Positions 197 to 16,236 of a stretch of DNA of 25,834 bases are shown here, piece by piece. A model generated the notes under the pieces. That model saw only the letters and a list, made by a program, of their open reading frames with translations, ran no database searches and was not told where the DNA came from. Both the position numbers and the translations under genes were made by a program. The DNA comes from Chrysochromulina tobinii (Eukaryota > Haptophyta > Prymnesiales > Chrysochromulinaceae), in assembly GCA_001275005.1 (NCBI GenBank), contig JWZX01001835.1:1-25834 (forward strand), in the 5' to 3' direction. Position 1 is the stretch's first letter, and the number at the start of each line of letters is the position of its first letter.

Positions 197-2612
197 ATGG
201 CCGACGAAGCGCCAACCGAGGCGGGCGGCGTGTCCAAGACCGCATGCAAGAAGGCCGCCGACGACGCGGGCAAGGCGGCGAAGAAGAAGCCCGATCCTGA
301 GGGCCTCGCACTCATCGAGCAGGCCAAAGAGGCTTATGCGGCCAAGGACCTCGAGAAGGCGTTTGCGCTCTACAAGGAGGCAGAGGAGAAGTGCAAGAAC
401 TCGACGATGGATGCGGTGCCCAAGGAGAAAAAGCCCAAGGGGCCCAATCTGCATGCTGCGGCGACCGACGCTGCCGCTGAACTGGCCGCCGACGATGCGA
501 CCGCCGCTGAGGCCGAGAAGAAGCCGCGGCTGTACCTGTCCAACCCGGAGGAGAACCTGCAGGCGAAGCCGACGCGCGAGGGGATGGCCGCGGGTTGCAA
601 CTACGCCCTCAACTCACCGGCAAAGCTCAAGAAGCACCTCGAAACGACGGGCGGCGCGTACCGGACGCGCTTCCCGCCCGAACCGAACGGCTACCTGCAC
701 ATCGGGCATGCTAAGGCGATGAACTTCAACTTCGGGCAGGCGCGCATCGCGCGCGAGATGGGCAAGGGCGGCACCACGGTGATGCGCTTCGACGACACCA
801 ATCCGGCCGCCGAGAAGCAGGAGTTCATCGACTCGATCCTCGACAACCTCAAGTGGCTCGGCCACGAGCCTGCGAGAGTGACTTACTCGTCCGACTACTT
901 CCAGGAGCTGTACGATCTGGCGGTGCAGCTGATCAAGGACGGCGGTGCGTACGTGTGCCACCAGACCGGGCCGGAGATCAAGGCCTCGCGCGAGCTGCTG
1001 CGCGCGTACCACGGACGCGGCCTCAAGGCAAGTGAGCGAGGCCCACTGCCTAAGGGTGCCGCTTCGCCGTGGCGTGATCGGCCCGTGGCTGAGAACCTTG
1101 CCGAGTTCCGGAAGATGAAACAGGGAAGGTACGCACAGGGGACGGCTTTCCTTCGCCACAAGGGCGACCTGTTCAGCGAGAACTCGTCCATGTGGGATCT
1201 CGCCGCGTACCGCATCATCTACCAGGCACACCCGCACACGGGTGACGCCTGGTGCATCTACCCGACGTATGACTACACCCACTGCATCGTCGACTCGCTC
1301 GAGGACATCACGCACTCGCTGTGCACGCTCGAGTTCGCGCAGCGGCAGGCGGCCGACGGCCCGTACTACCACCTGCTCCACAGCCTTGGGATGTACAAGC
1401 CAGTCACGTGGGAGTATTCTCGGCTCAACCTCACCCACGCCGTCATGTCCAAGCGGAAACTCAAGTTCCTCGTCGTGTATGGCTACGTGGGCGGCTGGGA
1501 CGACCCTCGGCTCTGTACGCTCAACGGCCTGCGCCGGCGCGGCTACACGGGCGCGACGCTCAACCGTTTCTGCGAGGCCGTTGGCGTGACGCGCGCCGCG
1601 ATGGTGGCACGCAATGAGCTGCTTGAGCAGCTTGCGAGACAGGTATCATGGCGCTCGAATGGCCTCGCCTTGCCCCCCAGATGGCCTCGCTTTGCTAATG
1701 GATGGCCTCGCCTTGCCCCTGGATGGCCTCTTGCCCCTGCGTGCCTCTGATGGCCTCCGATTGCATCTCTGAGTGCATGCGGATCTCGCGCGACAGGAGC
1801 TCGAGGCGGTTCCGCGCCGCTTCGCCGTGCTCAAGCCGCTCAAGGTACTGCTCAGTGGCCTGGCTGAGGGGGGCAAGAGCTTTGAGATGAAGAACCATCC
1901 GCTCATCGACGCGATGGGCGCTCGCCAGATGCATCTCGGCAGCGAGATCTACATCGAGATGGACGACTTCCGGCCCGAGCTCGCCGATGACCCCAAATTC
2001 TATGGGCTCGCGGTCGGGCGCGAAGCCGGCTTGCTCGGCGCGGGCGTCAACATTACGGTGACCGAGGCTGTGCGCGACCCGAAGACAGGAGAGCTGCTGC
2101 ACTTGCTCGCGACGGCGGACCCGACACGTGAGCGAAAGGTCAAGGGCCACCTGCACTGGGTGAATGCCCAGACGGCCGTCCCTGCGGAGTGCCGTGTGTA
2201 TAGCGTGCTCTTCTCGCCCGAAGACCCCGAGCTCGCAGCCAAGGAGATTGCGGCGGCGGCGGGCGCAGCGGAGGCGGAGGAGAACGACGACAATGACGAA
2301 GACAATGACGATGCGGACGCCGCTGCTCTCGAAGAGGCCAAGGCCAAGGCGGCGGCGGCGGCGGCGGCGGGCAAGGTGGCGTTGCCCAAGTGGCTTGAGC
2401 TGCTCAACCCAGACTCACTCGTCGTCGAGAGCGCGCTCGTCGAGAGCTGCTTGGCCAAGGAGGCGGCGCCGCCCAACAAGGCCGCCGACCGTCCCGCCTT
2501 CCAATTTCAGCGCGTCGGCTTCTTCTGTGTTGATGACGATTCGACGACGGCCAATCCCGTCTTCAATCGCATCGTCGCTCTCAAGGAGGACAAAGAGAAG
2601 AAGACGCTGTAG
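197..2612 (+). CDS. QARS1: Glutaminyl-tRNA synthetase, cytosolic eukaryote type (two exons)
   Basis: Class Ib aminoacyl-tRNA synthetase that charges tRNA-Gln with glutamine. Coding sequence is join(197..1642, 1797..2612), 753 residues. The start is the ATG at 197 (context aaacATGG). The N-terminal ~150 residues are Lys/Ala-rich with a helical, TPR-like segment. The Rossmann fold begins at FPPEPNGYLHIGHAKA, with the HIGH signature at residues 168-171. The family-typical SPWRDRP, CIYPTYDYTH, D(S/I)xEDITHSLCT and WEYSRLNL blocks follow, and the KMSKS-equivalent is VMSKR at 416-420. Exon 2 encodes the anticodon-binding beta-barrels (from AVLKPLKV, through the region leading to LNPDSLVV). An Ala/Asp/Glu-rich insertion (about 2240-2385), including a run of Ala codons, interrupts the distal barrel region and is not typical of the family. 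Splicing at 1642/1797 joins LEQLARQ to ELEAVPRRFAVLKPLKV and restores the expected family sequence. Identification is firm; the exact start is less so. Confidence 0.95.
1643..1796 (+). other. Intron 1 of the glutaminyl-tRNA synthetase gene (GT-AG, 154 nt, phase 0)
   Basis: The frame stops at 1750 in the middle of a conserved domain, and the family sequence resumes in another frame at 1797. Donor CAG|GTATCA and acceptor GCGACAG|GAGC join the two in frame. The intron contains three to four degenerate copies of a GATGGCCTCGCCTTGCCCC unit, then decamer-like units TCTGATGGCC, TCCGATTGCA and TCTGAGTGCA. The last nucleotides of the upstream exon (CTTGCGAGACAGG, spanning into the intron) reappear almost exactly at the acceptor (CTCGCGCGACAGG). 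Confidence 0.85.
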
Positions 2613-2834
2613 CCGACATACGGCTGTAGAGGGTGTACGGCCCAGAGGGCTCGAGGGGCCATCTTTTGTTGGGTCAAACATGTCGAGCCTGTACTTCGCC
2701 TCCGGTGGGTCGGCTTTCGATGTTGTGTGTCAGTGGAATGTGCTCATGTTCGGCATGGGCCAGGTGGCCGCATGCGGCACGGACGAGGACGACATATGCC
2801 ATATGGAGGACGAGAACGGAAGCCGTTTCGGCCG

Positions 2835-2901
2835 GTTCTGAACTTGCGGGCGGGCCGGTGGTGCGTCACTTCTTGTTCTGAACATGCGGGCGGGCCGGTG
2901 G
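2835..2901 (+). repeat. 27-nt direct repeat, period 40, spanning the phosphatase start codon
   Basis: Positions 2835-2861 and 2875-2901 are identical except at one base. That base makes the second copy AACATGCGGG, which contains the ATG at 2884, while the first copy reads AACTTGCGGG. So the predicted start codon of the downstream phosphatase lies inside a duplicated sequence. Confidence 0.85.
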
Positions 2902-4776
2902 CTCTTGCGCCGCACATACTCCTCCGGCGCACTCCCAGTCCTCCCAAGCCGCGTGGCCGCTGCTCTTGATGAGCGGGCGGACGCAAACCGTGTTCTCTTG
3001 GCGAAGATGCTGCAGTTGCTAAGGAAGCGCGTGGTCGACAGTGACCCATCGGTGAGCCAGTTGGCATATCCTCCAGAGCCGGAGAGCTCAAGCATTACCC
3101 TGGATGCAGCGTCGCTCACGCACGGCACGGTGAGCGACGTTGTTCAACGCCTTTGCACCGACCCTGACGCGCGCCTCCACCCGACGGCCCTCAAGCTCGC
3201 CCTCGACTCTGCCGCGTCGGCGGCGGGGCAAGATCGGACGGTCGTCGATCTGACGGATCGTACGATGGTGAGCATCGTCGGGGACTTGCATGGTTGTGCG
3301 CTCTCACTACGCCACGTCATGGGCATTGTGGGCGCACCCTCCGAGTCATCCGCAATCGTCTTCAACGGCGACTTTGTCGACCGCGGCGCAAACGGCGTCG
3401 AAGTGCTCGCGTCGCTCGCGCTGCTGAAGGCATGCCATCCGCGCGACGTGGTGCTTCTGCGCGGCAACCATGAGGACGAGCTGCTCGCCACAGCGTACGG
3501 CTTCAAGGACGAGCTCACGAGCAAGTATCCGGGCCAGGCAGCCGAGCTGTGGGACGCTGCGGTCCGCTTGTTTGCGGCGCTGCCGCTTGGCGCCACGGCC
3601 CCGGAGGCGTTCATCGTGCACGGCGGGCTGCCTTCGGAGAAGTTTGAGATCGCGACGCTCGCGCGGCTGGGTGTGGCCGAGCGCAGGCTGCCCAGCGTGC
3701 TGCGCGCCGCGGCGGCGCCTGAGGGGCCCTCAGCCCATGCGGCAGCCGAGCAGTTGGCCTTGATGCAAGGCGTGCTGTGGAGTGACCCGGCCCACGGTCG
3801 GGATCACGTGGGCGTGAAGAGCAACGACTCGCGTGGCGGCACGGGCTGCCTCTTCGCGGAGGACGTGAGCCGCGCCTTTTTGCAACGTGAAGGCCTGCGA
3901 TTCCTCATCCGGTCCCACCAGGTCGTCGAGGAGGGGTACGAGCGCACGGTGCTCGACGAGCCGACAACGACGAAGCCGAGCTCGGAGCTGACGAAGAGCT
4001 TGGAGCTACTCACCGTCTTCTCGGCGGCCGCGTACCCGAATGGCGAGGGGGCGAACAAGGGCGCCGTGCTCCGACTGCGTGCTGCCCCGGTGCATGGCGC
4101 CGTGTCGGGCGCGGGCGCGCGCGCGGCCACCCTCGAGCCAGTCACCTTTCAGCTTCACGGGGCGTCCAGGCCGGATCGCGACGCTGACGCGCGCCGCTCT
4201 CTCGGCGCCCTGATCCGCTCGCATCGCGGCCGGCTGCGCGAGCGCTTCGGCGCACACGTGCGCGAGAAGCAGACGCGCATCGGCGTGGACGCGTGGGCCT
4301 CTGTGATGCGGAGCGAGCTCAAGCTGCTCGTCGACTGGGAGGCGCTCCAGCCCGCGCTGGCGCCGACGATCAAGCGAGGAGGGTCCACAGGACTCGTCGA
4401 CACAGGGCTGGTGGACTTTGAGCGCTTCTTAGCGAGTCCGCTGGTGGCGGGTGAGGCCGAGGGTCCGCGAGGCAAGCCCGCGAGCGGTGGCGCAGCCCAG
4501 GCCGGCGAGATCGAGCGCCTCTATAAGAGCCTCGAGTCCTTGCGAGCGGTCGTCGAGATGCTCGACACCGACAAAAATGGCAAAGTCGACCGCGACGAGT
4601 TCCTCGAGGGCTTTCAGCAGCTCAACGAGGGCCTGCCTGACGCGGAGAAGCTGAGCAGCGAGCAGGGCTGGCGCGACGTGGCGAATGCGCTCTTCGACAC
4701 GGTCGACACCGATGGGAGCGGCACGATCTCGCTGGCGGAGCTGACGGAGGCCTTCCGGATGACGGTGATGCGGTGA
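2884..4776 (+). CDS. PPP-family Ser/Thr protein phosphatase with C-terminal EF-hands (PPEF/RdgC-like)
   Basis: Metallophosphatase predicted to dephosphorylate Ser/Thr residues with a two-metal centre; the EF-hands suggest control by calcium. The sequence is intronless, 630 residues, close to the usual PPEF length. The PPP hallmarks appear in order: GDLHG (Asp134, His136), GDFVDRG (162-168), RGNHE (193-197), HGG (246-248) and RSHQ (343-346, His345). Thus the metal ligands and the catalytic His are all present. Two canonical EF-hand loops follow, DTDKNGKVDRDE (561-572) and DTDGSGTISLAE (608-619). The stretch of about 150 residues between catalytic domain and EF-hands is charged and holds a partial helical region. 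No obvious N-terminal IQ motif is visible, unlike animal PPEF. The first ~40 residues (MRAGRWLLRRTYSSG...) are Arg/Ala-rich and could be a targeting peptide or mis-assigned leader; the next in-frame ATG is at 3007. Confidence 0.9.
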   Translation: MRAGRWLLRRTYSSGALPVLPSRVAAALDERADANRVLLAKMLQLLRKRVVDSDPSVSQLAYPPEPESSSITLDAASLTHGTVSDVVQRLCTDPDARLHPTALKLALDSAASAAGQDRTVVDLTDRTMVSIVGDLHGCALSLRHVMGIVGAPSESSAIVFNGDFVDRGANGVEVLASLALLKACHPRDVVLLRGNHEDELLATAYGFKDELTSKYPGQAAELWDAAVRLFAALPLGATAPEAFIVHGGLPSEKFEIATLARLGVAERRLPSVLRAAAAPEGPSAHAAAEQLALMQGVLWSDPAHGRDHVGVKSNDSRGGTGCLFAEDVSRAFLQREGLRFLIRSHQVVEEGYERTVLDEPTTTKPSSELTKSLELLTVFSAAAYPNGEGANKGAVLRLRAAPVHGAVSGAGARAATLEPVTFQLHGASRPDRDADARRSLGALIRSHRGRLRERFGAHVREKQTRIGVDAWASVMRSELKLLVDWEALQPALAPTIKRGGSTGLVDTGLVDFERFLASPLVAGEAEGPRGKPASGGAAQAGEIERLYKSLESLRAVVEMLDTDKNGKVDRDEFLEGFQQLNEGLPDAEKLSSEQGWRDVANALFDTVDTDGSGTISLAELTEAFRMTVMR

Positions 4777-5082
4777 GCGGGACAGTGTCCGAGTCTGGTA
4801 CATGTGTGCCAACTCCACAGGCGCGGAAACACATTCACATTCACACACACACCTTACACATGGCGGGTGCCGCACCTTTGCGCGGTTCGGGAAACCACGT
4901 TCGACCTTGTGTTCACAGATGCGCGAGCTCGCGGCGTTGAGTACAGTACCGGTGTGCGCCCGCGTGTTCCGTGTGTCTCGTGTGTGTCCCGGCTCCCCCC
5001 GGTGTCTTTTTACCGGTACCGGTCTAGACCGGTAGGCCGGTAACAGTATATATGTTTTCGGCGTCGGCGGCGAGATGTGACC
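4777..5082 (+). other. Intergenic stretch: GT/CA-rich part and likely promoter of the beta-helix gene
   Basis: The 306 bases between the two plus-strand genes hold a CA/TG-rich segment (about 4827-4865 and 4955-4990), an isolated TACCGGT at 4947, and a cluster of ACCGGT motifs and a TATA-like run (described separately). No RNA gene or ORF with support is seen. Confidence 0.5.
5011..5053 (+). promoter_or_regulatory. ACCGGT palindrome cluster followed by TATATAT, upstream of the beta-helix gene
   Basis: Positions 5011-5023 read TACCGGTACCGGT, and 5017-5034 form a perfect 18-nt palindrome, TACCGGTCTAGACCGGTA. A further GCCGGTAAC follows at 5036-5044 and TATATAT at 5047-5053, about 30 nt before the ATG at 5083. 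A dyad next to a TATA-like run fits a core promoter with a dimer-binding site, but if TATATAT were a true TATA box the 5' leader would be almost absent. The function is inferred. Confidence 0.45.
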
Positions 5083-6225
5083 ATGGTCGTGCTCCCCGAC
5101 GCGAGTGCTACCTCCAGCGCGACCGTGAGCTCCTTCACCAGAGCCGAATCGCAGTCGACCGCAGCTCACACATGGGAGTCGCGGGTGCTTGCGCTGGCAA
5201 TGGCTGCTCATAGCCGCCTTGGCATCCACTGTGCTCAGTCTGTGTGCGATGTGGCCAGATCGCCCGATCTTCTCCTGCAGATCATGCGGCAAGCCGTGCT
5301 GGTCGTTCCGGACGATGTGTCGACGCTGGTTGCGGCTCTTCACCGTGCCGCACCGTGGCAGCAGGTGCTGCTCCGGCGTGGCGAGTACAACGTTGATGGT
5401 CGTGTGGGTGGTGGGCCGGGCTCTTCACAATTGCGTGTGAGTCGCCCCGTCGAGATTTGCGGCGAGCCGGGTGCGGTGCTGCGTGGCACGCTTGTGCTCG
5501 ACAAGCACTGCCTTGGCGGTGCCGTGCGCAATTTGCGCATCGACGACGGCGGCGACTGTTGCATTCGCTGCGAAGGAGGGAGCTGGGAGCTGACGGGGGT
5601 GAGGCTGCGTTGCTCACACGGTTCGGCCCTGCTCGTCACCGGGTCGTCACGCGTTGTGCTGAGCGAGTGCGTGCTGGGCGGAGAAGACGACGAGGAGGCC
5701 GGTCAGCATGTGATGCTCTCGGCCTACGGCTCGTTACAGGAGACTGGTCTGCATAAACGCGCTTGCTTTGCCCTCGTCTCAAAGGACGAGGCACGCATCG
5801 TCGCCAAGCTGTGCTCACTGCGCCAGTGCAGCGAGGCCGCTGTGCTCATCGCCCACGCGTCTCTCGTGTTCCTGGAGGCATGCGACCTCTCACACTGCAC
5901 AGCCGCCTTTCTGGCCGGGGAGGGCTTCGGCCACTCACTGCGGCTGGACGGGTGCACCTTAATGAAGACGGCACTCAAGATTTGGGCAGATGCTGACCGT
6001 CCTCGGGCCTTTGAGTGGGGTGCGAGCGAGTACGAGGAGGTCCGCGAGGAGCCCGAGGGCGAGGAGAGCGGCTACGCGGACATTGTGCGGCCCGCACAGC
6101 CACGTGGAGCCCATGACGACGACTCATCGGACACGGACTCTCTCGAGGATGCCACCGCGTTCGCCAACATGGAGGCGCTCATGGAGGAGCTCGACAATGC
6201 CGCGCTGAGCGCGGCCGCGTCGTGA
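5083..6225 (+). CDS. Right-handed beta-helix (pectate-lyase-like/CASH fold) repeat protein
   Basis: Predicted 380-residue protein with no signal peptide or catalytic signature that I recognise. The ATG at 5083 sits in a strong context (gaccATGG). After a Ser/Thr-rich N-terminus comes the typical start of a right-handed beta-helix domain of the type found with F-box or SHCBP1-like proteins: VVPDDVSTLVAAL, then RGEYNVDGRV, then VSRPVEICGEPGAVLRGTLVLD. This is followed by short repeated rungs (VRNLRIDDGGDCCIRCEGGSWELTGVRLRCSHGSALLVTGSSRVVLSECVL..., then ...VFLEACDLSHCTAAFLAGEG..., then LRLDGCTLMKTALKI). The C-terminal ~80 residues are acidic (EYEEVREEPEGEESG, DDDSSDTDSLED). Such proteins usually serve as binding scaffolds; an enzymatic role cannot be read from the sequence. 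Confidence 0.8.
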   Translation: MVVLPDASATSSATVSSFTRAESQSTAAHTWESRVLALAMAAHSRLGIHCAQSVCDVARSPDLLLQIMRQAVLVVPDDVSTLVAALHRAAPWQQVLLRRGEYNVDGRVGGGPGSSQLRVSRPVEICGEPGAVLRGTLVLDKHCLGGAVRNLRIDDGGDCCIRCEGGSWELTGVRLRCSHGSALLVTGSSRVVLSECVLGGEDDEEAGQHVMLSAYGSLQETGLHKRACFALVSKDEARIVAKLCSLRQCSEAAVLIAHASLVFLEACDLSHCTAAFLAGEGFGHSLRLDGCTLMKTALKIWADADRPRAFEWGASEYEEVREEPEGEESGYADIVRPAQPRGAHDDDSSDTDSLEDATAFANMEALMEELDNAALSAAAS

Positions 6226-6751
6226 GTGCGGGGCCACTCATTTTGTTCTTGATGTCGCGTTCACGAGTCATGATGTATACAGTCTACGGTCCAACATCCG
6301 CACAAAATCCCGTAGTACATAATATATTAGACCTAAGACCATAGATTACCGATCGGAGCGACATCTCAATTCACATGATCGGATAGGGGGGTACCGTCCG
6401 GAATTCGTATACTGCTGTCTCCCGGGCGTGGGGCGCGCGTCGCGCGTCGATGTCCGTTTGCGCATAGGTGGCAAGCATGCATGTGTGTAGCTGTTCTCCC
6501 ACATTCGATTGACGATTCTCGTGAACGTCGCATCGCCACGCGAACGATCCAAGTAGATCCAGGCCTGTGGCTCGTATCCGCTGCGCATGGACTCAGCTTG
6601 CCTCGACACGCTCGATTGACATCCTCAACATGGATCTGCACGGAGAGCTGGCTGTCGAAGTGGCAGCTGCGCACGCACTCCCCCTACAGTACCGGTACAC
6701 TCCCCTTGAGCGCCTCAGTCCGACCCCTGTGCATGGAGTGCATGATCCACT
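6226..6751. other. Convergent intergenic region with no supported gene
   Basis: These 526 bases lie between the 3' ends of the beta-helix gene (+) and the metalloprotease gene (-). The first part is AT-richer than the coding sequence (about 6265-6350, with TAATATATTAG near 6322) and probably holds the 3' UTR and poly(A) site. A GTACCGGTAC palindrome lies at 6689-6698, the same core motif seen upstream of two genes. Open frames here are short and without recognisable similarity. Confidence 0.5.
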
Positions 6752-8767
6752 CTAGTGCTCTGCAATGGCCATGAATTGAGCGGACGGAGACGATGATTGA
6801 GCCGTGACGGCGGCAGGGACGGACGGATACGTGGTTGATTGAGTGGACCCGGCCGCTCTCATTTGGCACCTCCCAAACTTGCCGAAGGCGCTGTACAGCC
6901 TCGACTTGGCCATTTGCTTCCTGTGCTTCGCTTCGATGAGCTCCTTCTCTTGTTCATACTTGGCCCGATGGCGCGCAGCCTCGCGCCGCTCGAAGCCGTG
7001 CACGACGCTGCTGCACGTGATGACCATGAAGAGGCAGATGATGGTCGGGAAGAGGAGGTACACGGCGATGCGCACGATGCCGATGTTCAGGTTGATGTTG
7101 TGGCAGACCGACTCGAAGAGCGCCGACTTGGCATTGCAGTCGGGGTAGAGCACCGCGAGTGCCTCGAGGTCGTCGTCAAACAGGCACGTGCGGGGGTTGT
7201 GCTGGGTGCGCGACTCCATCTGCGCGTCGCGCGTCGGGTAGCGCACGTTGAGCTTGGTCTCGTCAATGTCTTTGGAGGCGCCCGGGGGCACCCCCGCCTC
7301 GACGGCGGCCCACGGGTTGTTGCAGAACAAGCTCGGGTTCGGGCGCGTGCCGTCCAGGAGCGCGCCCGAGATGAGTCTGTGGTACGAGTTGTTGCCCGGC
7401 GAAGGCAGCGCCCAGCTCTGCGAGGCGCCGTTGGCGGGGGTGAGCCAGTTGTCAGGGATGTTGTCCGGGTGGCCCAGGCCAAGGAAGTGTCCGATCTCGT
7501 GCAGCGCCGCCGCCTCGAAGTCGTAACAGTCAAAGCACGGCTGGAAGATGCGCGTCGTGATCACGGGCGGCAGGATGAGCATCAGGATGAAGATCGTGAG
7601 GATGACCGGGTTCCAATGCGCGATGACGCGCACGATCGCGGCGAGGCGCTCCTTGATGGAAAGTTTCCCGTCGCCATCCTCATCGTCCACGTGAGCGCCC
7701 TTCGCGTCGCGCTCGTCGGCGTCTTCGCAGACGCCGCAGTGCAGCGTGCGCATCACTATGGTAGCGACCAGACAGAAGTAGAAGAGGATCGCGATGGCCG
7801 TGACTCCGTAGGTCAAGCCCCAGATGAGCAGTCGCGCATTCCCGGGTGAGCCAAGTGATTGCTTGAGCTTGTGGAAAGGCGCGCAGAACTGCGAGTCCAG
7901 GTACCAGCACACCCGCTTCACATTGAAGCTGAATGTGCCCGCGTACGCCTCGACTACCTGCGTGCGCGGCATCTCACACTCATCAGAGGGACACTCGGGG
8001 GCACTCAGAGAAACCACTCATATCGGACTACTATATAGTACGGAGCTATATACTCGAGCTCAACGAGGCACTCAGGGGCCTACTACCTGGCGGTTAAAGT
8101 TGACGACGCCTGCGGAATTCGTGAAGCATGGGCGTCTACCGTTGCTGTAGCGGAAGTCGGAGCTGTACTGCGCGTGTGGCAGTGCCGTCGCCACGGCGGT
8201 CCCATCTCCTCCGTTGCCGTTCTCGCCATCTAGGCTGTGGTCGTGCGACGTGACCCAGATCTCAGCGAGGGGGCATCCCCCGTGCGGGAAGACGCAGCCA
8301 GCTGCCATGGAGCTCGGGTTGCATGCGGGGCCCACGTGCCTCGGGCCCGTGGGCGGGCCGTAGTTGAGCCCGGCGAGCGTGCACTCCTCGGTCATGTCGA
8401 CAAACTTGAGGAATCGGCTGTTGGCCGCCCACTTGTCGAACGCACGCGCGACCGCCGCGTGGATCTCCTTGCAACCGACGAAATTGCCACCCGGGATGTC
8501 CTCGCGGAACTGTGGCAGGATGAGGGCGCAGAGCTTTGCGTCAAAGGCCCACGTGATCCCACCACCCAGACCACGGGTATCGTCCGAACTCTCGGGACTG
8601 TGCCACAGCCAGCCCAGTTCAGCGATGGGGTCTGACCGAGTGCGCCGACCGCACATCATCTGCGATTGGATCTCGCTGATCTGCGCGCCGTAGACGGACT
8701 GCGAGGTGGTGACCCAGCCATAGACGTGCGCGAGCAGCGTCGCAATCACGGCGAAGCGAGCAGCCAT
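6752..8767 (-). CDS. Membrane matrixin-like (M10-type) metalloprotease with an inserted TM hairpin and EF-hand
   Basis: Zinc metalloprotease. Coding sequence is complement(join(6752..7957, 8087..8767)), 628 residues. It starts at the ATG at 8767 with a signal peptide (MAARFAVIATLLAHVYGW). The first half resembles the N-terminal part of a matrixin domain: GGGITWAFD, AVARAFDKWAANSRFLKFVD, then AEIWVTSHDHS. The zinc site HEIGHFLGLGHPD is at 380-392, with the three His and catalytic Glu381 present. A plausible Met-turn (AQMESR) and the usual FDDDLEALAVLYPD end the domain. Between the halves lie two hydrophobic helices (about 270-296 and 345-362) around a canonical EF-hand loop, DEDGDGKLSIKE (319-330). 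A third helix (IGIVRIAVYLLFPTIICLFMVI) follows the catalytic domain, with a basic C-terminal tail. With a signal peptide the two catalytic halves would lie outside and the EF-hand loop inside the cell. The substrate is unknown; wall or matrix remodelling is only a guess from family members such as gametolysin. Confidence 0.85.
7958..8086 (-). other. Intron of the metalloprotease gene (GT-AG, 129 nt, phase 0)
   Basis: On the minus strand the donor is CGCCAG|GTAGTAGG and the acceptor CACGCAG|GTAGTCG. Removing it joins GVVNFNRQ to VVEAYAGTFSFNVKRVCWYLD in frame. The octamer CAGGTAGT occurs at both boundaries. The intron contains decamer-like units CCTGAGTGCC, TCTGAGTGCC, CCCGAGTGTC and TCTGATGAGT, plus an AT-rich middle with TATATAG repeats. 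Confidence 0.85.
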
Positions 8768-9122
8768 CGTGTTTTTACGAGTAAATCTCGTCAACGTGCC
8801 CGTCACAAAAACAAGGCGTTCTTAAATTGAGGGTCCGCCCTGGAGGCCCGATTTGGGTCGGTAGTCAGTGTCCGTTTGCATGCTGGACCTCTCTTCAAAT
8901 ATCGAACCGAGCAGTATTCGGATAGCCGATTGTTATTAGTTTTTGAGTGAGAATTCACACAAAGTTGACACCTGCAGAGAGGGGCGCATTCTGAGACGTC
9001 AAGCCGAGAGCTGAGCCGGACCCGCCACGCAGACTCTTCCAGTTCCACAGACTGGAGCATCTCTTGACACCAAAGACTCATCTGACATATCCGATACTGT
9101 GGAGACTCATCTCGACACCGCC
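8768..9122. other. Intergenic region upstream of the metalloprotease; nothing recognised
   Basis: These 355 bases separate the start of the metalloprotease gene (-) from the stop of the GTPase-domain gene (-). The part around 8890-8960 is AT-richer and may hold the metalloprotease promoter. I see no strong TATA box, RNA gene or conserved ORF. Confidence 0.4.
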
Positions 9123-11443
9123 TCATCGACCAGGCCATTCGAACGCGAAGCTTGCCGCGTCGATTGAGCTCATGCACGAGTCCATGGAAGCACTCGCCGC
9201 CAATCGGACACCGACGCCGACGCCCGCGCCCACACCAAAAAAGGGCAGCCCTCCCGCGAGCTGATCGTGCATCAAGTGCGCCTTGTGGCTGGGGCGTGGC
9301 GCGGCGCACGTCTCGACCAGCCGCCACAGCTCGCGCATGTTCGTGCCACGCGTCGCGCTACCCGCCAGAAAGCGAGCCGCCGTACCGTCGAGGGACCTCA
9401 GCTCGGGGATCGGGCATGGCTGCAAGTCGGACTTGTTGCAGAGCACGAGGAGTCGTGAGACGAGCGCCTCCTGCTCCTTCTTGGAGGCGAGCTCGTGTGT
9501 GAGCTGCTTGAGATGGCGCGCCACGTACTCCTGCGAGGGAGCCACAATCACAGGTCATCAGGGTTCATGAGGGGGAATCACAGGTCATCAGGGTTCATCA
9601 GAGGCCGTCGGCGCACCTTGAGGGAGCCGCGCTGCTCATCCACCGCATCCCACACGACGAGGGGCGTCGCCGCTACCAAGGCCTCCCTCGCTGTGGGCTT
9701 ACCCTCGACGACACTGAGCAGCACGTTGTTGCTCGCTGCGAAGCCCTCGAGCACTGCGATGACGGTCGACTTTCCGACGCCTGCGTCGCCGAGCACGATG
9801 AGATGTGGGAGTGCCGCCGACGGCCATCCCGGGACCGCGGGTAACGACGGCGTGGTCGTCGGCGACGGCCAAGCCGGCACCACAAACGCTGGAGCTGCTA
9901 CAGGGGGGCTCGCGGGTATCAATGGCGTTGTGGATCTGCTGTTGATGGCCTGGCCGGTGCCACCGTCGGGGATCGCCTGGTCAGGGTCCTCCTGGTCACG
10001 CGAGCCGGCGTCGGCGCTGGCTTCGGTGGCGGGCACAGCACTAGCTGGCCCGGCGCGTTGGCTTCGCTGGCGGGAGTCCCAGCCCCCCGCAGCTGTCAAA
10101 CCGCCGCCGCCGCTGCCCCCACCGCTGCCCCCACCGCTGCCCCCGCTGCGTGAGGGAGTGGGGCGGTGTAGCGGCAGCGGCGGCGTGGCGCCCATCACGC
10201 CAGACACGGGCACAGGCAAAACGAGCATGGCGCAGGCAGAACGAGGCACGTGCAGCGGCAGTGGTGACAGCATTGCGCTCCCGAACAGCGGGGGTTCGCT
10301 GTGGGGATCGCTGCTGTGCGTCGGGGGGCTACTGCCGTGCAGAGCGGCCATCCCCGGGCTCGCTTGCTGCGGCGTGGTCCATCCGGCGTCGTCACGCTCT
10401 TGACCTCGGCGTGACCTCGTGACCTCGGGTTCGTCACGCTCGGGCATCCCGAGGTCACGCACGAGGTCGAGTAATGACGTCTGCAAGTTGCCAGGGAGCT
10501 CCAGTAGGGGCGATACGCTATGCCGCTCCCCTGCGCCACCCGCCGCCCGGGGCGGCGTCGGGCTCAGGCTGCGCGGGCTGGCGCGTGGGCTGGCGCGTGG
10601 GCTCAGATCGCGAGGCGTGGTGCGCGGGCTCTGGCGCGGGCTACTGCGCGGGCTCCACGCATTCGAATTCTCCCCGGCGGACTCGGCGACTCGCGGCATG
10701 CTCGGCACGTACGGCGCCGGCTTGCTGCGCCGCCCGTCGCTCCGCTCGTCGAAGGCCGCAAGCATGTCCGCGCACGCCTTGACCGCCCGCGTGCTTTTGA
10801 GCTCGACAAGGGCTGGGCACGAGAGGCTGCGGTGCATCGCGCGGTTCTGCTGCTTGCGCAGCTTGCGACCCTTGAAGAAGCCGACCGCGCCCACAAGCAG
10901 CGCGCACAAAAACGTGCCGAAGATCAAGTCGGACACTTCGGACGGCACCACGTTCTCGACGCATTGCGGCAGCGGCAGCAGAGGCGCCGTGTTGGCCGCG
11001 GTGGGTGTACCCACGTACGCCTGATGCTTCAACAAGCGCTCGCGCTCCGCCCGCTCGCGCTCGGCCTTTTTGCGCGCGATGGCCTCCTCCTTGCGTGCCT
11101 GCTCCTTGGCGCGCTCGAGCCGCTCGCGCTCGGCCTTCTCCCGCGCGGCATGCTCCTTGGCCTCGCGCTCGAGCCGCTCGCGCTCTGCCTTGTCACGAGC
11201 CAACCGCTCGCGCTCCGCCCTTTCGCGCTCCTTGTCCGCCCTCTCGCGCTCCGCCTTCTCCCGCGCCGCCTGCTCCTTGGCGTCGCGCTCGAACTTGTCG
11301 CGTTCTGCCTTCTCCCGCGCCGCCTGCTCCTTGGCGTCGCGCTCGAACTTGTCGCGCTCCTCCTTACCCGCCTTGGCCTGCTCCTTGACGCCGCGCTCGC
11401 GCTCGTCGCGATCTATCTTTTCGCGATCCTTGTCCTTGTCCAT
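9123..11443 (-). CDS. Coiled-coil, single-TM protein with a divergent C-terminal small-GTPase-like domain
   Basis: Coding sequence is complement(join(9123..9530, 9617..11443)), 744 residues from the ATG at 11443. Residues 1-140 are an extremely charged Lys/Glu/Arg helix with repeated units (DKFERDAKEQAAREKAER twice, then related ERERLEREAKE forms), likely coiled coil. One hydrophobic helix follows at 172-190 (DLIFGTFLCALLVGAVGFF) with Lys/Arg just after it. Next is a long disordered Ser/Pro/Arg linker with SPR repeats (SPRSSPRQSPR...) and a Gly/Ser run. The C-terminus has a P-loop GDAGVGKST (552-560), a YDVT-like LVVWDAVDE, a G4-type NKSD (641-644, in LLVLCNKSDL) and a G5-type SAT (667-669). 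This order and spacing fit a Ras-like fold, with an SRP-receptor-beta-like arrangement of TM plus GTPase as one possibility. The switch region between P-loop and WDAVDE is short and has no clear DxxG (VVEGKP stands in its place). The family is not assigned; nucleotide binding is likely, hydrolysis uncertain. The last ~55 residues after LVETC are low-complexity. Confidence 0.75.
9531..9616 (-). other. Intron of the GTPase-domain gene (GT-AG, 86 nt, phase 0)
   Basis: On the minus strand the donor is CCCTCAAG|GTGCGCC and the acceptor CCCTCGCAG|GAGTAC. It joins WDAVDEQRGSLK to EYVARHLKQL and restores the GTPase fold. GGCTCCCTC occurs immediately before both splice sites. The interior holds two near-identical ~30-nt units made of TGATGAAC, CCTGATGACC and TGTGATT elements. 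Confidence 0.8.
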
Positions 11444-11730
11444 TTTGTACGTAGCGGGCGTATTCTCGGGCAGCTACAGGTTCTACAGGTTTGACTGCGA
11501 CTTTTGACTCGCGCTGCCGGGCACGGACGCCCCCAGCGACCATCTTTCGCAATCTCGGATTCGAAATGCTCGATTGACGAATTGAGGACTCATCCTGAGA
11601 CAGGGAAGGACAGTGCAAGAGCCTTTCGCATTTGACCAGAACTGCAGTGGACTGGCAAGTGTGTATGGTGAACCAAGTGGCGTGAAATGAGGAAGCTCAG
11701 GCCAAACTGGGTTTTTTGAAGTCGTGGTGG

Positions 11731-14343
11731 ATGCTCTCTTGGCTGATTGGGCTCGGCGCCGAGGCTGTCGGGCCGGCGGCGGCGCCGTCGAGCCCAACGG
11801 GATCGGAATTGGCAACGGGATCAGGTCACGCCGCAGATTCTCGCGCCACCGCCATGCTCGATGGGGGCGAGACCTCTGGCGCGTTCGCGAGTGCCGGGCA
11901 GACCTTTCAGGTCCTGTCGGGCACGGTGGTGCCGGGATACGACGCGTTCGTGGCGGCGCAGTCGAAGACTCTGCACGCGTATGCCAAACTGCGCAGCGAG
12001 ATGCGCGCGCTCAACTTCCTCGCCCAGCATCCGGTGCTGCTCGAGGAGATCGCTCACGTGCGCCACTTCTTCCTCATGCGCCACCTTGATCTGAAGATGC
12101 CGATGGAAGAGGCGGAGGAAGAGGCGGCAGGCTTCTTCTTGCTCGATGCGGCCGCTCACGCCGCGCGCAGCCACTACCTCAAGCACAAGGAGAGCGTGAG
12201 CGCCTCCGCGCAGGAGGGCGTGCGCATGCTCGCCGCGGCCGTGAGCGCCCCGGGTGATCCGGTGGGCGTGGGCCCTTGCATAGCGCAGCGCGTGGGGGCG
12301 TGGATGGGTGTGGTGCACCAGCAGCGCGACCAGCTGCGCGAGCACCTCTTCAGCAAAGGCAGCGCCCTCCCCCACTACAAGTCACCCGCGAAGGAGAGGG
12401 AGTCCAAGCACCCTGCGAGCTCGAGTCCCAAGCCCGCAAGGAGCCCGAAGCATAAGGATCAGGCCAGCCCGAAGCAGCAGCATGCTGAGCAGCAGCCGCC
12501 GAACCCGCAGACCAAGCGCTCGCCGGCGACCGCGCGCGGCAAAACGTCCTTGACGGCGCGCAACGCCAAGCCGCCGCTCAAGGAGCGACGGAGCAAGCCG
12601 GCAGTCGACCCAGCGCGTGTGCTCGAGACGCTCGGGTACATCTGAGTGCATCTGAGTGCATCTGAGTGCATCTGAGTGCATCTGTGTGCTCGAGACGCTC
12701 GGGTACAAGCCTCTCGGCCCGATCGCGCAGCTGCATGCAAGTGCTCACCACGGCGCTGCCCCCCCCCCCTCCCCACAGGTACAAGCCTCTCGGCCCGATC
12801 GCGGCGGGGGCCTTCTCGACCATCCTTCGCTGCAAGGCGCTGCGCGACTCGGGCGCCGTGCTGAGTGGCGTCGAGGTCGCGGTGAAGAGCTTCGACGCCG
12901 CCAAGTGCGCTTACATCTGCCACCCTGATTGCGCCTGATTGCGCCTGATTGCGCTCATCATCTGCCCTCAACATCTGATTGCGCTCATCATCTGTCACGA
13001 ATGTGCCACCGCCCTGAGAGTGCCACCCTGAGTGCGTCTGATTGCGTTGCATGCAGGTGCTCGAAGGACCCCACACCCTGAGTGCGTCTGATTGCGTCTG
13101 ATTGCGTTGCATGCAGGTGCTCGAAGGACCCCACGCTCGCGGCGGCGCGTGACAACGAGATCGAGGTGTTGCGCTTGCTTCGCGTCGAGCTCGACCAAGC
13201 CGCGGAGGGTCGGGGAAGCCACGTGGCGAGGGGAGGCCATCCGCACGTGGCGAACATGCTCGACGAGCTCGGGGACACGAGCGAGCCGCACATACACGCG
13301 GTGCTTGAGTACTGCGCGGGCGGCACCCTCAAACGCTACTTGCAGGCGCGTCCGAGTGCCTCCGAGTGCCTCCGAGTGCCTCTCTGACTGCCCCTCCCAT
13401 GGCCTCTCATTCCCTCTCATTCCTCTCCTCGCAGGCGCTCACGCTGCTCAAGGTGGGCTCCGTCTCCCCGAGCGTGGCTGGGCTGCAGGGCATGGTGCCG
13501 CCGCTGGTTGCGCGCGCCACCTTCCAGCTCGCGAGCGCGCTCGCGCACCTGCACGGGATGGGCGTGGTGCATGGCGACCTCAAGCCTGCCAACGTGCTGC
13601 TGCGCGATATCGTCGACGTCAAGGATGAGGCCAAGGCCGCCTCCATGCTCCACCTCAAGCTGTGCGACTTTGGGTTCGCTTGCAAGTGCGACGACAAGAA
13701 GCTTCGCTGCTACTGCGGCACGCCCGCGTACCTGGCACCCGAAGTGGCGACGCCCACGGACGCGCATAAGGGCTACCACGGCAAGCCCGTCGACATGTGG
13801 GCGCTCGGATGCGTGCTGTATGAGATGCTGCACGCCTCGCGAGCCTTCACCTCGCTCGAGGCCTACCAGCTTGAGTGCTGCGTGCGCCAGTGCAACTACA
13901 ACCCAGTCTGCTCCGAGGTACCGCCCGCGGCCAAGGCGCTCATCTCGGAGCTCATCGTGGCCGACTACACGGCGCGCCTCAGCGCCGCCCAGGTCCTCGA
14001 GCACCACTGGATACGCAACCCGAATGAGCACTGGCCGCCCGCGAGTTGGGGGGGCCAGTCGGCGCGTAACGAGCGCCGTTCGCCGCGCGCGATCACACCT
14101 CAGCGCCCATTCACGGCGAGGACTAGCGGTGCTCGGCAGCCCTCACGCACGCCGCGCTCGCCCTCGCCGCACCGGAGCCCGCAGCCACGCGCCGGGGGCG
14201 GAGGCAGCTCCTTCCACGCCGAGTCCCGGAGTCCTTTCCATGCTCCCTCGTCCGACGCGTTGCTACAGCGTCCGAGTGGAGTGCTCGACGCGCAGGCCGA
14301 GGTGGACTCGCCTGTGCCGGCCAAAGGCGGCGGTGGTGGTGGA

Positions 14344-14382
<39 letters not shown>

Positions 14383-16236
14383 TTCGTGCCGGGTAAGCAC
14401 CGGGAGATGAGCGATGAGGGCTCGATGCCAACAGATCCGACCGATGCGGGCGCGCCCACAGGTGAGCTGATGCCCTCTGATGGCCTCTGATGACTTCTGG
14501 TGACCTCTGATGACCTCTGATGACCTCTGATGACCTCTGATGGCCTCTGATGACTTCTGGTGACCTCTGATGACCTCTGATGACCTCTGATGACCTCTGA
14601 TGGCCTCTGATGACCTCTGATGACCTCTGATGACCTCTGATGACCTCTGATAGCCTCTGATGGCGATGTCGTCGCACCCTCGCCCTCCGCAGCTGGTGGA
14701 GGCACCTCGACCAATACGGGCCGGCGTGCCTCCGCTCGCTGGCACCAGTCCGCTCGAGGCCAGTCGGCGCGCTACCCACATCCGACGCGCGTGGGCGATC
14801 AGTTCGTGTGGACGACGGCCGAGCCGGTGACGAAGCCCAACCCCAAGTCAGCTCGGGGCAGCAAGAGTAGCCGCAACGGGAGCCACGGATTTGACGACAC
14901 GCGGACGAAGCCCAACGGCGCCGACGAGAGTGAGAGCGAGAACTTGCCGGATACGCCGTCGGGCACCTCGTGCGACTCGTCGCCGCATCCGTGGACACGG
15001 CCCGCCCTAGAGCCCTCGCCCTACGCGCAGGCGCCGCCCAAGAAGCTGCCGCCGCGCCGACGCGACCGACCACCACGGGCGCTCGGGACAGCGCCCCTCG
15101 AGGAGGCCGACGCGTCCTTCGCGAACGCGGCCGGCTCCGACGCCTACGCCGGGCGCCGTGGTGAGCACTTGCATGCCGGCTCCGAGGCCTATGCGCTCCC
15201 CGCCGCCTTTCGTGGCCTCGACGCGCCCGGTGCGCCCACGCCGGCCATGGTGGTGGACGCGGCGCCCGCGACGGCGCTCGAGTGGCTCGCCACGTTTGGT
15301 AAGAGCCACGTCGGCCTCGCCGAAGCAGTCCTCACGACCCTCGAGGCTCATATGGACCAGCTCGCCGAGGTGCGGGCTGCCGGCGGCGCCGATCCCGACG
15401 ACGAGCTCCGCGGCCGCTTTGGCTTCTTCGGCGGCCTCGGGGGCGGCCTCGGCCTCGGAGGCGGCGAGCCGCAGCCGCTGCTGGCGGCGGGCGAGATCGA
15501 GGGCATCGTCAAGGCTCTCAAGTGCCACCCGTCGTCTGATCGGCTGCAGGCCCTCGGCATCGGGCTGCTCGGCCGCATGTGCGACTCAGACGAGCGTATC
15601 CGTCTCGCCTTCGAAGCGGGCGCGCCTCAGCTGGTACTCAACACCATGCGCGCCCTCCCGAGCGCTGATGCGGTGCAGATCGCGGGCTGCGTCGCGCTCG
15701 GGCAGCTCGCAATCTCGGCCTCGCGAGCTCGCGAGCTCGCGGCGCTCGGGGCGGCGCCTGCCGTGCTCGCGGCTCTCAGCGCACGGCCAGAGCGCGCCAA
15801 CTTGCAGGCATACGGCTGCAAAGCGATCGCCCGCCTCGTCGGCGGCAGCGCACCCGACCCGCAGTGCTGCCAGCTGGCGGCAGACGAGGGCGCGCTCTCC
15901 GCAGTCGTGGCCGCGCTTGAGCGCCACCCCTGCCATGAGGGTGTGCTGCAGTGGGCGACGAGCGCGCTGCTGCGGCTCTCGCACGATAATGCGAGTCGTG
16001 CGCACCTCGCCATCAAAGTCGGCGCGATCGAGGCGCTGCGCGGCGCGATTGCGAGCTTACCGGTCACAAACGCCGCCTCTACGTTCACGCGCACCAAGCA
16101 CGACGCGGCGCGTGCCACCCGACTGGAACTCGTCGAGAAGTGGCTCACGCTGCACGAGCGATTCGATTCGGCGCCGGCGAGCAAAGCTGAGCGCGTGTGG
16201 ATTGACATGGTCTGGGAGAGCTATGGCTCAGCGTGA
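11731..16236 (+). CDS. Protein kinase with N-terminal helical domain and C-terminal ARM-like repeats (five exons)
   Basis: Predicted Ser/Thr kinase of 1276 residues, join(11731..12635, 12779..12904, 13117..13345, 13435..14461, 14693..16236). Residues 1-300 are an unrecognised helical region followed by a Lys/Pro/Ser-rich linker. The kinase domain starts near YKPLGPIAAGAFSTI (303-317, first loop Gly replaced by Ala). It has VAVK (Lys338), a likely helix-C Glu358, hinge LEYCAGG, catalytic loop HGDLKPAN (466-473), DFG (498-500) and APE (521-523). All key catalytic residues are present, but HRD is HGD. After the C-lobe (LSAAQVLEHHWI) come an Arg/Ser/Pro linker and a run of about 19 Gly. The final ~250 residues contain ARM-like helices (IEGIVKALKCHPSSDRLQALGIGLL, LQAYGCKAIARLV, VLQWATSALLRLSHDN). 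The kinase-plus-ARM arrangement recalls Fused/ULK4-type kinases, but I cannot assign the family. The exon 3 boundary is uncertain (see that intron). The start could be a few codons different. Confidence 0.8.
12617..12803 (+). repeat. Copy of the spliced exon 1-exon 2 junction inside kinase intron 1
   Basis: Positions 12684-12707 are identical to 12617-12640 (24 nt, including the last 19 nt of exon 1), offset 67. Positions 12703-12727 are identical to 12779-12803 (25 nt, the first of exon 2), offset 76. The 44 bases at 12684-12727 therefore equal the mRNA across the splice junction (19 + 25 nt). Confidence 0.9.
12636..12778 (+). other. Kinase intron 1 (GT-AG, 143 nt, phase 2)
   Basis: Donor CTCGG|GTACAT, acceptor CCCACAG|GTACAAG; joining gives ETLGYKPLGPIAAGAFS. 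It opens with four TCTGAGTGCA units (12640-12681), then a 44-nt copy of the flanking exon junction (12684-12727), then a C-rich tract before the acceptor. Read through, the frame ends at TGA 12643-12645. Confidence 0.8.
12905..13116 (+). other. Kinase intron 2 (GT-AG, 212 nt, phase 2)
   Basis: Donor GCCAA|GTGCGC, acceptor ATGCAG|GTGCTC; joining gives FDAAKCSKDPTLAAARDNEIEVLRLL, which carries helix C. It contains CCTGATTGCG three times in a row (12925-12954), more TCTGATTGCG and CCTGAGTGCG units downstream, and a duplicated acceptor region. Confidence 0.75.
13025..13134 (+). repeat. Tandem duplication of the acceptor and start of kinase exon 3
   Basis: Positions 13025-13074 and 13075-13134 are the same sequence except that the second copy has one extra TCTGATTGCG decamer (50 versus 60 nt). 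Each contains the acceptor TTGCATGCAG and the first 18 nt of exon 3. Use of the upstream acceptor (AG at 13055-13056) would run into TGA at 13078-13080 after eight codons, so the downstream one must make the protein. Confidence 0.9.
13346..13434 (+). other. Kinase intron 3 (GC-AG, 89 nt; or GT-AG from 13376, 59 nt)
   Basis: The acceptor CTCGCAG|GCGCTC at 13434 is clear, and the next exon is in phase 0. Two donors keep the frame. TTGCAG|GCGCGT at 13345/13346 is a GC donor and matches the acceptor junction (GCAGGCGC on both sides). CTCCGA|GTGCCT at 13375/13376 is GT but would retain most of a TCCGAGTGCC triplicate (13351-13380) as ten codons. Since decamers of this kind lie inside the other introns, I prefer the GC donor. 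Confidence 0.6.
14462..14692 (+). other. Kinase intron 4 (GT-AG, 231 nt, phase 1)
   Basis: Donor CCCACAG|GTGAGC, acceptor CTCCGCAG|CTGGTG; joining reads GAPTAGGGTST and continues in frame into the ARM-repeat exon. Nearly all of it is a decamer array (separate entry), followed by a short C-rich tract before the acceptor. Confidence 0.8.
14476..14665 (+). repeat. Decanucleotide tandem array TCTGATGRCC with higher-order structure
   Basis: About 19-20 head-to-tail 10-nt units, mostly TCTGATGACC, with variants TCTGATGGCC, TCTGATGACT, TCTGGTGACC and TCTGATAGCC. A block of seven units (70 nt) in a fixed order of variants occurs twice in a row from 14476, so the array grew by multi-unit duplication. 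Every sense unit except the TCTGGTGACC variants holds TGATG or TGATA, so all three sense frames are closed. The antisense is stop-free in all frames. Confidence 0.95.

What the first reader, a model, noticed from the sequence alone, without database searches (positions are those of the whole stretch)
1643..14692. Shared decanucleotide family inside all seven introns
Seen: the seven introns that can be placed, in four unrelated genes on both strands, all carry related 10-nt units in the sense direction of their own gene: TCTGAGTGCA, TCTGATTGCG, TCCGAGTGCC, CCTGAGTGCC, TCTGATGACC. I did not notice arrays of them in exons or intergenic DNA. Each unit carries TGA (or CGA in a minority), and since 10 is not a multiple of 3 an array puts stops in all three frames, so a retained intron would end translation quickly. 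The CTGAY core resembles the branch-point consensus yUnAy, so arrays could supply many branch points. Inference: a lineage-specific intron component, either functional or the mark of how these introns arose. This is the strongest candidate here for an undescribed system.
Basis: partly seen in the sequence, partly recalled or inferred. Interest (0 to 1): 0.8.

Follow-up and report, generated by a model that had tools for sequence, protein, structure and literature searches.

The report
Decamer-array introners with long target duplications
In an alga genome related to Prymnesium and Emiliania, short repeated DNA cassettes that carry the end signal of an intron appear to have jumped into genes, copying a stretch of the gene as they landed, and so made many new introns.

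Summary
In 226 kb (window plus 20 contig starts) intron decamers run 145 sense to 5 antisense; period-10 arrays found without a motif rule are 30 sense, 1 antisense in labelled introns. But only 25 of 47 high-confidence introns carry one. They look like the mark of how introns arose, not a splicing device. Two dispersed cassettes end many of these introns, each with a branch-point-like motif and a 3' splice site: B, decamers plus TGATNGCCTCCCTCATCAG (2,305 matches, reversed control 0), and A, core GTGCTCANCACGGCGC (3,346 versus 22). The next exon often begins GT. In 10 of 20 A and 7 of 20 B copies, the start of that exon is duplicated (12-40 bp) before the insert (chance 4-8%). So the duplicated exon supplies the 5' splice site, the insert the 3' half. 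This works like introners, known from Chrysochromulina, but the duplications exceed the 3-9 bp described for earlier families, and the body is a minisatellite, which the published screen would probably have discarded. Splicing is inferred from protein homology; RNA evidence and the way of movement are missing.

The parts
1643..1796 (+). GlnRS intron with decamer units (TCTGATGGCC, TCCGATTGCA, TCTGAGTGCA); no flanking duplication seen
   Evidence: the spliced protein matches P0121 at 77% over 100% of its length; homologues continue across the junction as exon 2 reads (which aligned exon 1 only)
7958..8086 (-). Intron of a matrixin-like membrane protein gene, with CCTGAGTGCC/TCTGAGTGCC/TCTGATGAGT units; intron begins GTAGTA, next exon GTAGTC (weak similarity only)
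   Evidence: anchored score 5.0; the Peptidase_M10 match lies away from the junction
9531..9616 (-). Intron with CTGATGACC/CTGATGAAC units; next exon begins GAG, no duplication found
12617..12640 (+). First copy of a 24-bp exon segment (GTGTGCTCG..GGTACA) left of the decamer array of kinase intron 1
   Evidence: read from the sequence
12639..12689 (+). Decamer array (CATCTGAGTG x5.1, 97% matches) in kinase intron 1
   Evidence: TRF
12684..12707 (+). Second copy of the 24-bp segment, right of the array (the insert here does not end in AG)
   Evidence: read from the sequence
12703..12727 (+). Copy 1 of a perfect 25-bp target duplication (GTACAAGCC..ATCGCG); its GT is a candidate 5' splice site
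   Evidence: score 25.0, 25 bp
12728..12778 (+). Family A insert (..CTGCATGCAAGTGCTCACCACGGCGC..CCCCACAG), supplying branch-point-like CTCAC, pyrimidine tract and 3' splice site
12779..12803 (+). Copy 2 of the 25-bp duplication = start of the next kinase exon
12905..13116 (+). Kinase intron 2 with several decamer stretches
13057..13074 (+). Copy 1 of a perfect 18-bp duplication GTGCTCGAAGGACCCCAC inside intron 2
   Evidence: score 18.0, insert 42
13075..13116 (+). 42-nt decamer insert (CTGAGTGCG TCTGATTGCG x2 .. TTGCATGCAG) ending at the 3' splice site
   Evidence: sequence
13117..13134 (+). Copy 2 of the 18-bp duplication = start of the next kinase exon
13346..13434 (+). Kinase intron 3 (TCCGAGTGCC x3; GC donor, or a GT donor at 13376)
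   Evidence: the Pkinase match spans the junction
14462..14692 (+). Kinase intron 4; 19.6-copy array CTGATGACCT at 14467-14662; 3' splice site at 14692 or 14653; no duplication (score 8.5, below threshold)
15144..15174 (-). Family A copy inside a kinase exon, antisense to the gene, without the pyrimidine tract; 14-bp flanking duplication; duplication plus insert = 45 nt, in frame

Best explanation
The decamers are the body of an introner-like insertion family (B). An insert made of tandem CTGAKTGCCT-type units and ending CTGATTGCCTCCCTCATCAG or CTGATTGCAG lands in an exon in sense orientation and duplicates a long target stretch (about 14-50 bp). The insert ends with a 3' splice site directly before target copy 2. 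Copies survive mainly when the target begins with GT (or GC), because GT of copy 1 then serves as 5' splice site and removing [copy 1 + insert] restores the exon exactly. Family A does the same with a cassette inside inserts of roughly 35-80 nt. Shown here: cassettes, copy numbers, orientation, GT bias, duplications in part of the copies, protein continuity across some junctions. Inferred: that the insertion made the intron, that splicing occurs at these sites, that decamers were multiplied by slippage before or after insertion, and the way of movement.
For: B 3' cassette (<=1 mismatch) 2,305 genome matches, reversed control 0; A core 3,346 versus 22. Next exon begins GT in 21 of 46 unit introns and 5 of 5 A introns, against 4 of 58 other introns and 4.8% inside exons. 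GT follows the cassette in 61 of 100 listed (exact) B copies, GC in 16, and in 86 of 100 listed A copies ending CCCACAG, GC in 7; these four are my hand counts. Duplication of the exon start at score >=9: A 7 of 8 and strict B 4 of 13 in the random sample, introns with neither 2 of 58, exonic GT null 7.2% of 1,470; at >=12: 6 of 8, 3 of 13, 1 of 58, 4.2%. Copies taken by list order: A 10 of 20 (6 of 20 at >=12), B 7 of 20 (all >=17.5). Inserts that are decamers wholly or nearly: L014 2121 (24-bp duplication), L015 1940 minus (26, perfect), L025 8631 minus (27-28), L026 9565 (24, perfect), window 13116 (18, perfect). Coding flanks in sense: A 18 of 20, B 19 of 20 with 0 antisense and 1 unclear. 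DEAD, Y_phosphatase, Pkinase and HPAT matches run across array-intron junctions.
Against: Half of A and 13 of 20 B copies show no clear duplication. Some scored duplications are array-internal or repeat a whole cassette (L026 7116; L072) or do not begin with GT/GC (L015 7774 TT, L015 3768 CC, the latter antisense to its predicted gene; L050 CC, L051 AT on copy 1, L070 GA, L074 AA). The relaxed B count (12 of 31 at >=12) mixes exon-flank duplications with repeats inside arrays. Anchored at the predicted 5' splice site, only 3 of 46 unit introns and 0 of 5 A introns reached score 8. In one search the looser null was 14.2% at >=8 and 5.1% at >=12. Six of the 20 A loci (L039, L040, L043, L045, L050, L052) lack a CACAG-type end and may not be cassettes; L039 and L052 are the two antisense ones. 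Five of the seven window introns have no clear duplication. No RNA reads, no relative with an empty site at DNA level, no mobilising enzyme looked for.
Confidence: 0.77

Rival explanations
1. No mobile element: old introns gained minisatellites by slippage around their branch point, and exon duplications come from ordinary tandem duplication in unstable repeat DNA.
For: Arrays are homogeneous within but differ between introns. Whole units are re-duplicated, e.g. four A copies at 71-74 bp spacing in C90 and the repeated insert in L015 7982-8105. Many unit introns have no exon duplication.
Against: Thousands of near-identical 19-nt and 16-nt cassettes, in coding flanks of one strand in nearly all copies examined, are not explained by local slippage. 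Duplications begin right after the cassette's AG, mostly at GT, and occur with single A inserts that hold no array. An A copy sits antisense in an exon with its own duplication.
Confidence: 0.14
2. Functional splicing array: decamers are kept to give many branch points, decoy 5' splice sites (CTGAGT resembles GTGAGT) or stop codons that destroy unspliced messages.
For: Sense bias 145 to 5; units contain CTGAY or CTGAG, and in unit introns CTGA near the 3' splice site peaks at 15-19 and 25-29 nt; U2 has the usual GUAGUA.
Against: Conservation inside arrays peaks at G and A, not at U(-2) and A as branch points need, nor at T, G and A as stops need. 22 of 47 high-confidence introns have no sense unit. 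Sense bias also follows from the position of the 3' splice site.
Confidence: 0.08
3. Assembly or gene-finder artefact.
For: The gene finder is home-made and introns have no RNA support; the assembly is unnamed.
Against: Counts of cassettes and of GT after them do not depend on the gene finder, reversed controls are near zero, and Pfam matches cross junctions.
Confidence: 0.01

Closest known systems
Introners (Gozashti et al. 2022, PMC9860276; abstract, found passages and sections 7, 8, 15, 17, 23 seen)
   Same: Dispersed similar cassettes in introns of unrelated genes, insertion with target duplication, one splice site carried and the other taken from the duplication (as in Symbiodinium, their Fig. 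2B legend). Chrysochromulina sp. is among their hosts.
   Different: They give 3-9 bp duplications for earlier families and 4-8 bp in their examples; here 12-40 bp in list-order copies, up to 50. Their Chrysochromulina example has 4-bp duplications, carries the 5' and borrows the 3' splice site, the reverse of ours. They required similarity near both intron ends and removed low-complexity families, so these would probably have been missed (my inference).
Amoebophrya introner elements (PMC7789003; passages seen)
   Same: Repeated introns with direct repeats at the borders in a marine protist.
   Different: 3-5 nt direct repeats, 8-20 nt inverted repeats and non-canonical splice sites; here long direct repeats and GT/GC-AG; inverted repeats were not searched for.
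Intron gain by tandem genomic duplication (potato RdRp, PMC4974935; start of abstract in search listings only)
   Same: Duplicated exon sequence takes part in making a new intron.
   Different: As far as the listing shows, one gene by tandem duplication; here a repeated insert supplies the 3' half, in many genes.
Direct repeats at intron borders (Rogers and Bendich 2025, PMC11782384; abstract only)
   Same: Direct repeats of 4-30 bp (mean 11.4) near borders, read as insertion marks.
   Different: A survey of 213 introns across intron classes, not one family with a shared cassette.
Emiliania huxleyi intronic 10-11 bp tandem repeats (Read et al. 2013; recalled, paper not held)
   Different: I could not check sequence, strand bias or duplications; it may be the same phenomenon.

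Membership tests
Introner | Similar sequence in introns of many unrelated genes | tested here: met
   A 3,346 and B 2,305 matches, controls 22 and 0; coding sense flanks in 18 of 20 and 19 of 20 copies examined
Introner | Similarity reaches near both intron ends (criterion of the published screen) | tested here: not met
   Where a duplication is seen, only the 3' part is shared; the 5' part is the unique target copy
Introner | Target-site duplication at the insertion | tested here: met
   A 10 of 20, B 7 of 20 at score >=9 against 7.2% null; not seen in the rest
Introner | Short duplication of 3-9 bp, as described for earlier families | tested here: not met
   12-40 bp in the list-order copies; 9-50 bp apart from whole-unit repeats
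Introner | Terminal inverted repeats (some families only) | not tested
   No search was made
Introner | Intron newly gained relative to relatives | not testable with these tools
   No DNA of a close relative was available
Introner | Spliced out of mRNA | tested here: inconclusive
   No RNA; protein homology continuous across junctions in GlnRS, DEAD helicase, PTP, kinase intron 3 and HPAT
Ordinary minisatellite | No strand or genic preference | tested here: not met
   Of 51 TGA-bearing period-10 arrays: introns 30 sense and 1 antisense, intergenic 3, exonic 1, unlabelled loci 16

The most novel reading that the evidence does not exclude
These introners move through RNA rather than as DNA transposons: the 3' end of an excised intron (branch-point region to the terminal AG) is reverse-transcribed into a staggered break in a transcribed exon, giving inserts that end exactly at a 3' splice site, sense-biased genic location, long variable target duplications and borrowed 5' splice sites; repeated priming on the same short template, or slippage, makes the decamers.
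Probability: 0.22. Interest if true: 0.92.

Novelty: new variant of a known kind. Interest (0 to 1): 0.76.

Why it matters
How eukaryotes acquire new introns is an old open question. If right, a compact haptophyte genome holds very many introns made by two tiny cassettes, part of the target copies are still readable, and one family has a minisatellite body, a class that the published screen would probably have removed as low complexity. Duplications of 12-50 bp fit poorly with the short fixed duplications of the cut-and-paste transposons proposed for most other introners. It would also explain strand-biased decamer repeats in introns, and it can be tested with existing haptophyte genomes and RNA-seq.

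Tried and rejected
Rejected: U2-based explanation by extended pairing (U2 has the usual GUAGUA; my by-eye pairing finds complementarity only around CTGAY; not computed). Rejected: every unit as a branch point or stop codon. A first duplication count (A 20 of 29 and B 15 of 31 at >=8, null 14.2% of 351) used looser sites, included loci picked for their cassettes (L032, L033) and caught coding repeats; replaced. An earlier version had a faulty pattern and missed most A copies. The first anchored test found 0 of 5 A introns with a duplication because the gene finder had placed most of their 5' splice sites inside or near the cassette.

Led nowhere: rRNA search (unanswered, not tried again); viral-contig scans, 1 hit for A (L034, a contig of the viral collection whose last ~200 bp read like alga intron DNA, perhaps a chimera; judged by eye, no homology search) and 0 for B. 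Paper searches for prior reports: haptophyte introns with tandem repeats or minisatellites, Chrysochromulina tobin genome (passages of PMC4580454; of the Diacronema genome PMC8379373; of the Daphnia repeat survey PMC3152781), introners with haptophyte or Chrysochromulina, introner with tandem or target duplication. In these listings and passages I saw no report of decamer-array introners or of long duplications in haptophyte introns. Subscription papers and supplements were not read.

Full report
What the window is. The window is a whole contig (C832) of an unnamed 53.15-Mb, 2,253-contig genome. Its GlnRS is closest, among named proteins listed, to Prymnesium parvum (61%) and Emiliania huxleyi (56%), with unnamed environmental sequences closer: a haptophyte by homology. 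Genes read here include GlnRS, a matrixin-like membrane protein (Peptidase_M10) and a protein kinase.

Checking the observation. I wrote a small Viterbi gene finder trained on this genome. Introns and intergenic DNA share one emission model, so unit content cannot pull a segment into the intron class; coding frames cannot hold the units' TGA in frame, so absence from exons is partly by construction. In 225,834 bp (window plus the first 10 kb of 20 contigs spaced through the assembly), intron counts were 91 sense and 2 antisense for YCYGANTGC, and 54 and 3 for TCTGATGRCC; intergenic 10 and 2; exons 25 and 4. Arrays of period 10 detected with no motif rule numbered 59 over all held loci; 51 contained [CTA]TGA on one strand; in labelled introns these were 30 sense and 1 antisense, with 3 intergenic, 1 exonic and 16 in unlabelled loci. 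Genome-wide, three CTGA at 10-bp spacing occur 11,589 times against 1,146 for the reversed pattern.

Are they introns? The spliced GlnRS matches P0121 at 77% over its whole length; an alignment of exon 1 with five homologues shows them continuing as exon 2 reads. In spliced models, Pfam matches cross array-intron junctions: DEAD helicase (L010, junction at residue 293 in a match of 169-337), tyrosine phosphatase (L011, 266 in 70-286), HPAT (L015, 218 in 152-354) and Pkinase (window, intron 3). The kinase and HPAT models had cassette translations removed by hand, outside the named junctions. No RNA evidence was available.

What they are. Array introns end in a few recurring ways: CTGATTGCCTCCCTCATCAG, CTGATTGCAG or similar. 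The first belongs to a dispersed cassette with 2,305 genome matches at <=1 mismatch and none in the reversed control. Introns without decamers led to a second cassette, TGCATGCAAGTGCTCACCACGGCGCC, pyrimidines, CACAG, with 3,346 core matches against 22. Some B inserts also hold TGCATGC before the last unit (L055, L074), so the two may be related. Each cassette contains a yUnAy-like motif (CTGAT or CTCAC) at a usual distance from the AG (recalled ranges).

The exon after these introns is unusual: it begins with GT in 21 of 46 unit introns and 5 of 5 A introns, against 4 of 58 others. In the listed rows, GT follows 61 of 100 B copies (16 more are GC) and 86 of 100 A copies ending CCCACAG (7 more are GC), by my hand count. 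The cause is visible in young-looking copies: the exon start is duplicated upstream of the insert. Window kinase intron 1: GTACAAGCCTCTCGGCCCGATCGCG, 51-nt A insert, the same 25 bp again. Window kinase intron 2: 18 bp, 42-nt decamer insert, 18 bp. L015 9439: 43 bp with 42-nt A insert. L015 1940 minus: 26 bp perfect around 52 nt of decamers. L026 9565: 24 bp perfect around 76 nt, mostly decamers. L014 2121: 24 bp (two differences) around 110 nt of decamers.

How often? Random sample: duplication score >=9 in 7 of 8 A ends, 4 of 13 strict B ends, 2 of 58 introns with neither, and 7.2% of 1,470 exonic GT positions; at >=12, 6 of 8, 3 of 13, 1 of 58 and 4.2%. One of the strict B hits is array-internal and one begins CC. 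Exact copies taken by list order, one per contig: A 10 of 20 (6 of 20 at >=12), B 7 of 20 (all >=17.5; one of them, L072, is a repeat that itself holds a cassette). Six of those 20 A loci lack a CACAG-type end. Duplication lengths there were 12-40 bp, medians 20 (A) and 23 (B). A relaxed array definition gave 12 of 31 at >=12, mixed with array-internal repeats. Anchored at the gene finder's 5' splice site only 3 of 46 unit introns reached score 8, so most older copies show no readable duplication.

Mechanism. Best reading: insertion into an exon with a long target duplication; the insert carries branch-point region and 3' splice site; the duplicated target carries the 5' splice site; splicing [copy 1 + insert] out restores the message. 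GT at the start of the target is then explained by selection alone, though one A copy antisense in an exon (window 15144-15174) also begins its duplication with GC, which hints at an insertion preference (n = 1). In the list-order copies nearly all lie in sense with coding flanks: A 18 of 20 (2 antisense, both without a CACAG end), B 19 of 20 (1 unclear) (loci of about 500 bp, home-made model). Few intergenic or antisense copies of B would be odd for a DNA transposon unless selection or decay hides them; this leaves room for an RNA route (novel case).

Function of the units. Within arrays, mismatches to the array consensus are lowest at the G (8 of 336) and A (13 of 336) of CTGA and at the C four bases after the A (16 of 336), and not low at the T (27 of 336). 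That fits neither branch points in every unit nor stop codons in every unit. The arrays look like multiplied insert body; the last unit may serve as branch point.

Compared with the known. Published introners (PMC9860276, sections read) share the principle, including a Symbiodinium family that carries the 3' and borrows the 5' splice site, and a Chrysochromulina family that does the reverse with 4-bp duplications. The differences here are the long variable duplication, the tiny 3'-only cassette, and the minisatellite body. I therefore call it a new variant of a known kind. I recall, unverified, that the Emiliania genome paper mentions 10-11 bp tandem repeats in introns.

Limits. Home-made gene models, one genome, no RNA, no relative with an empty site; half or more of the copies show no duplication; organism known only by homology.

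Noticed in passing
genome-wide; window 12728-12778: Second dispersed intron cassette, family A (TGCATGCAAGTGCTCACCACGGCGCC..CACAG), 3,346 core matches at <=1 mismatch, not mentioned in the finding.
   Followed up: yes
window 15130-15188, minus strand: Family A copy antisense inside a kinase exon with a 14-bp duplication; 45 nt in frame, so it adds 15 codons: an exonised cassette.
   Followed up: partly
L033 (C90:14700-15600): Four A cassettes at 71-74 bp spacing, with target copies between: [target+insert] units re-duplicated in tandem.
   Followed up: partly
predicted introns of the sample: About 14% of predicted donors are GC rather than GT (false introns included), and GC is the second commonest dinucleotide after the B cassette.
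   Followed up: no
L034 4300-4554: A contig of the viral collection whose last ~200 bp look like haptophyte intron DNA with an A cassette; perhaps a chimeric assembly.
   Followed up: partly
window 13346-13434: Kinase intron 3 may use a GC donor and its next exon also begins GCGC, a possible decayed duplication.
   Followed up: no
L026 6949-7169 and 7669-7813: Large decamer arrays whose unit-plus-exon blocks repeat, so several candidate 3' splice sites follow each other.
   Followed up: no
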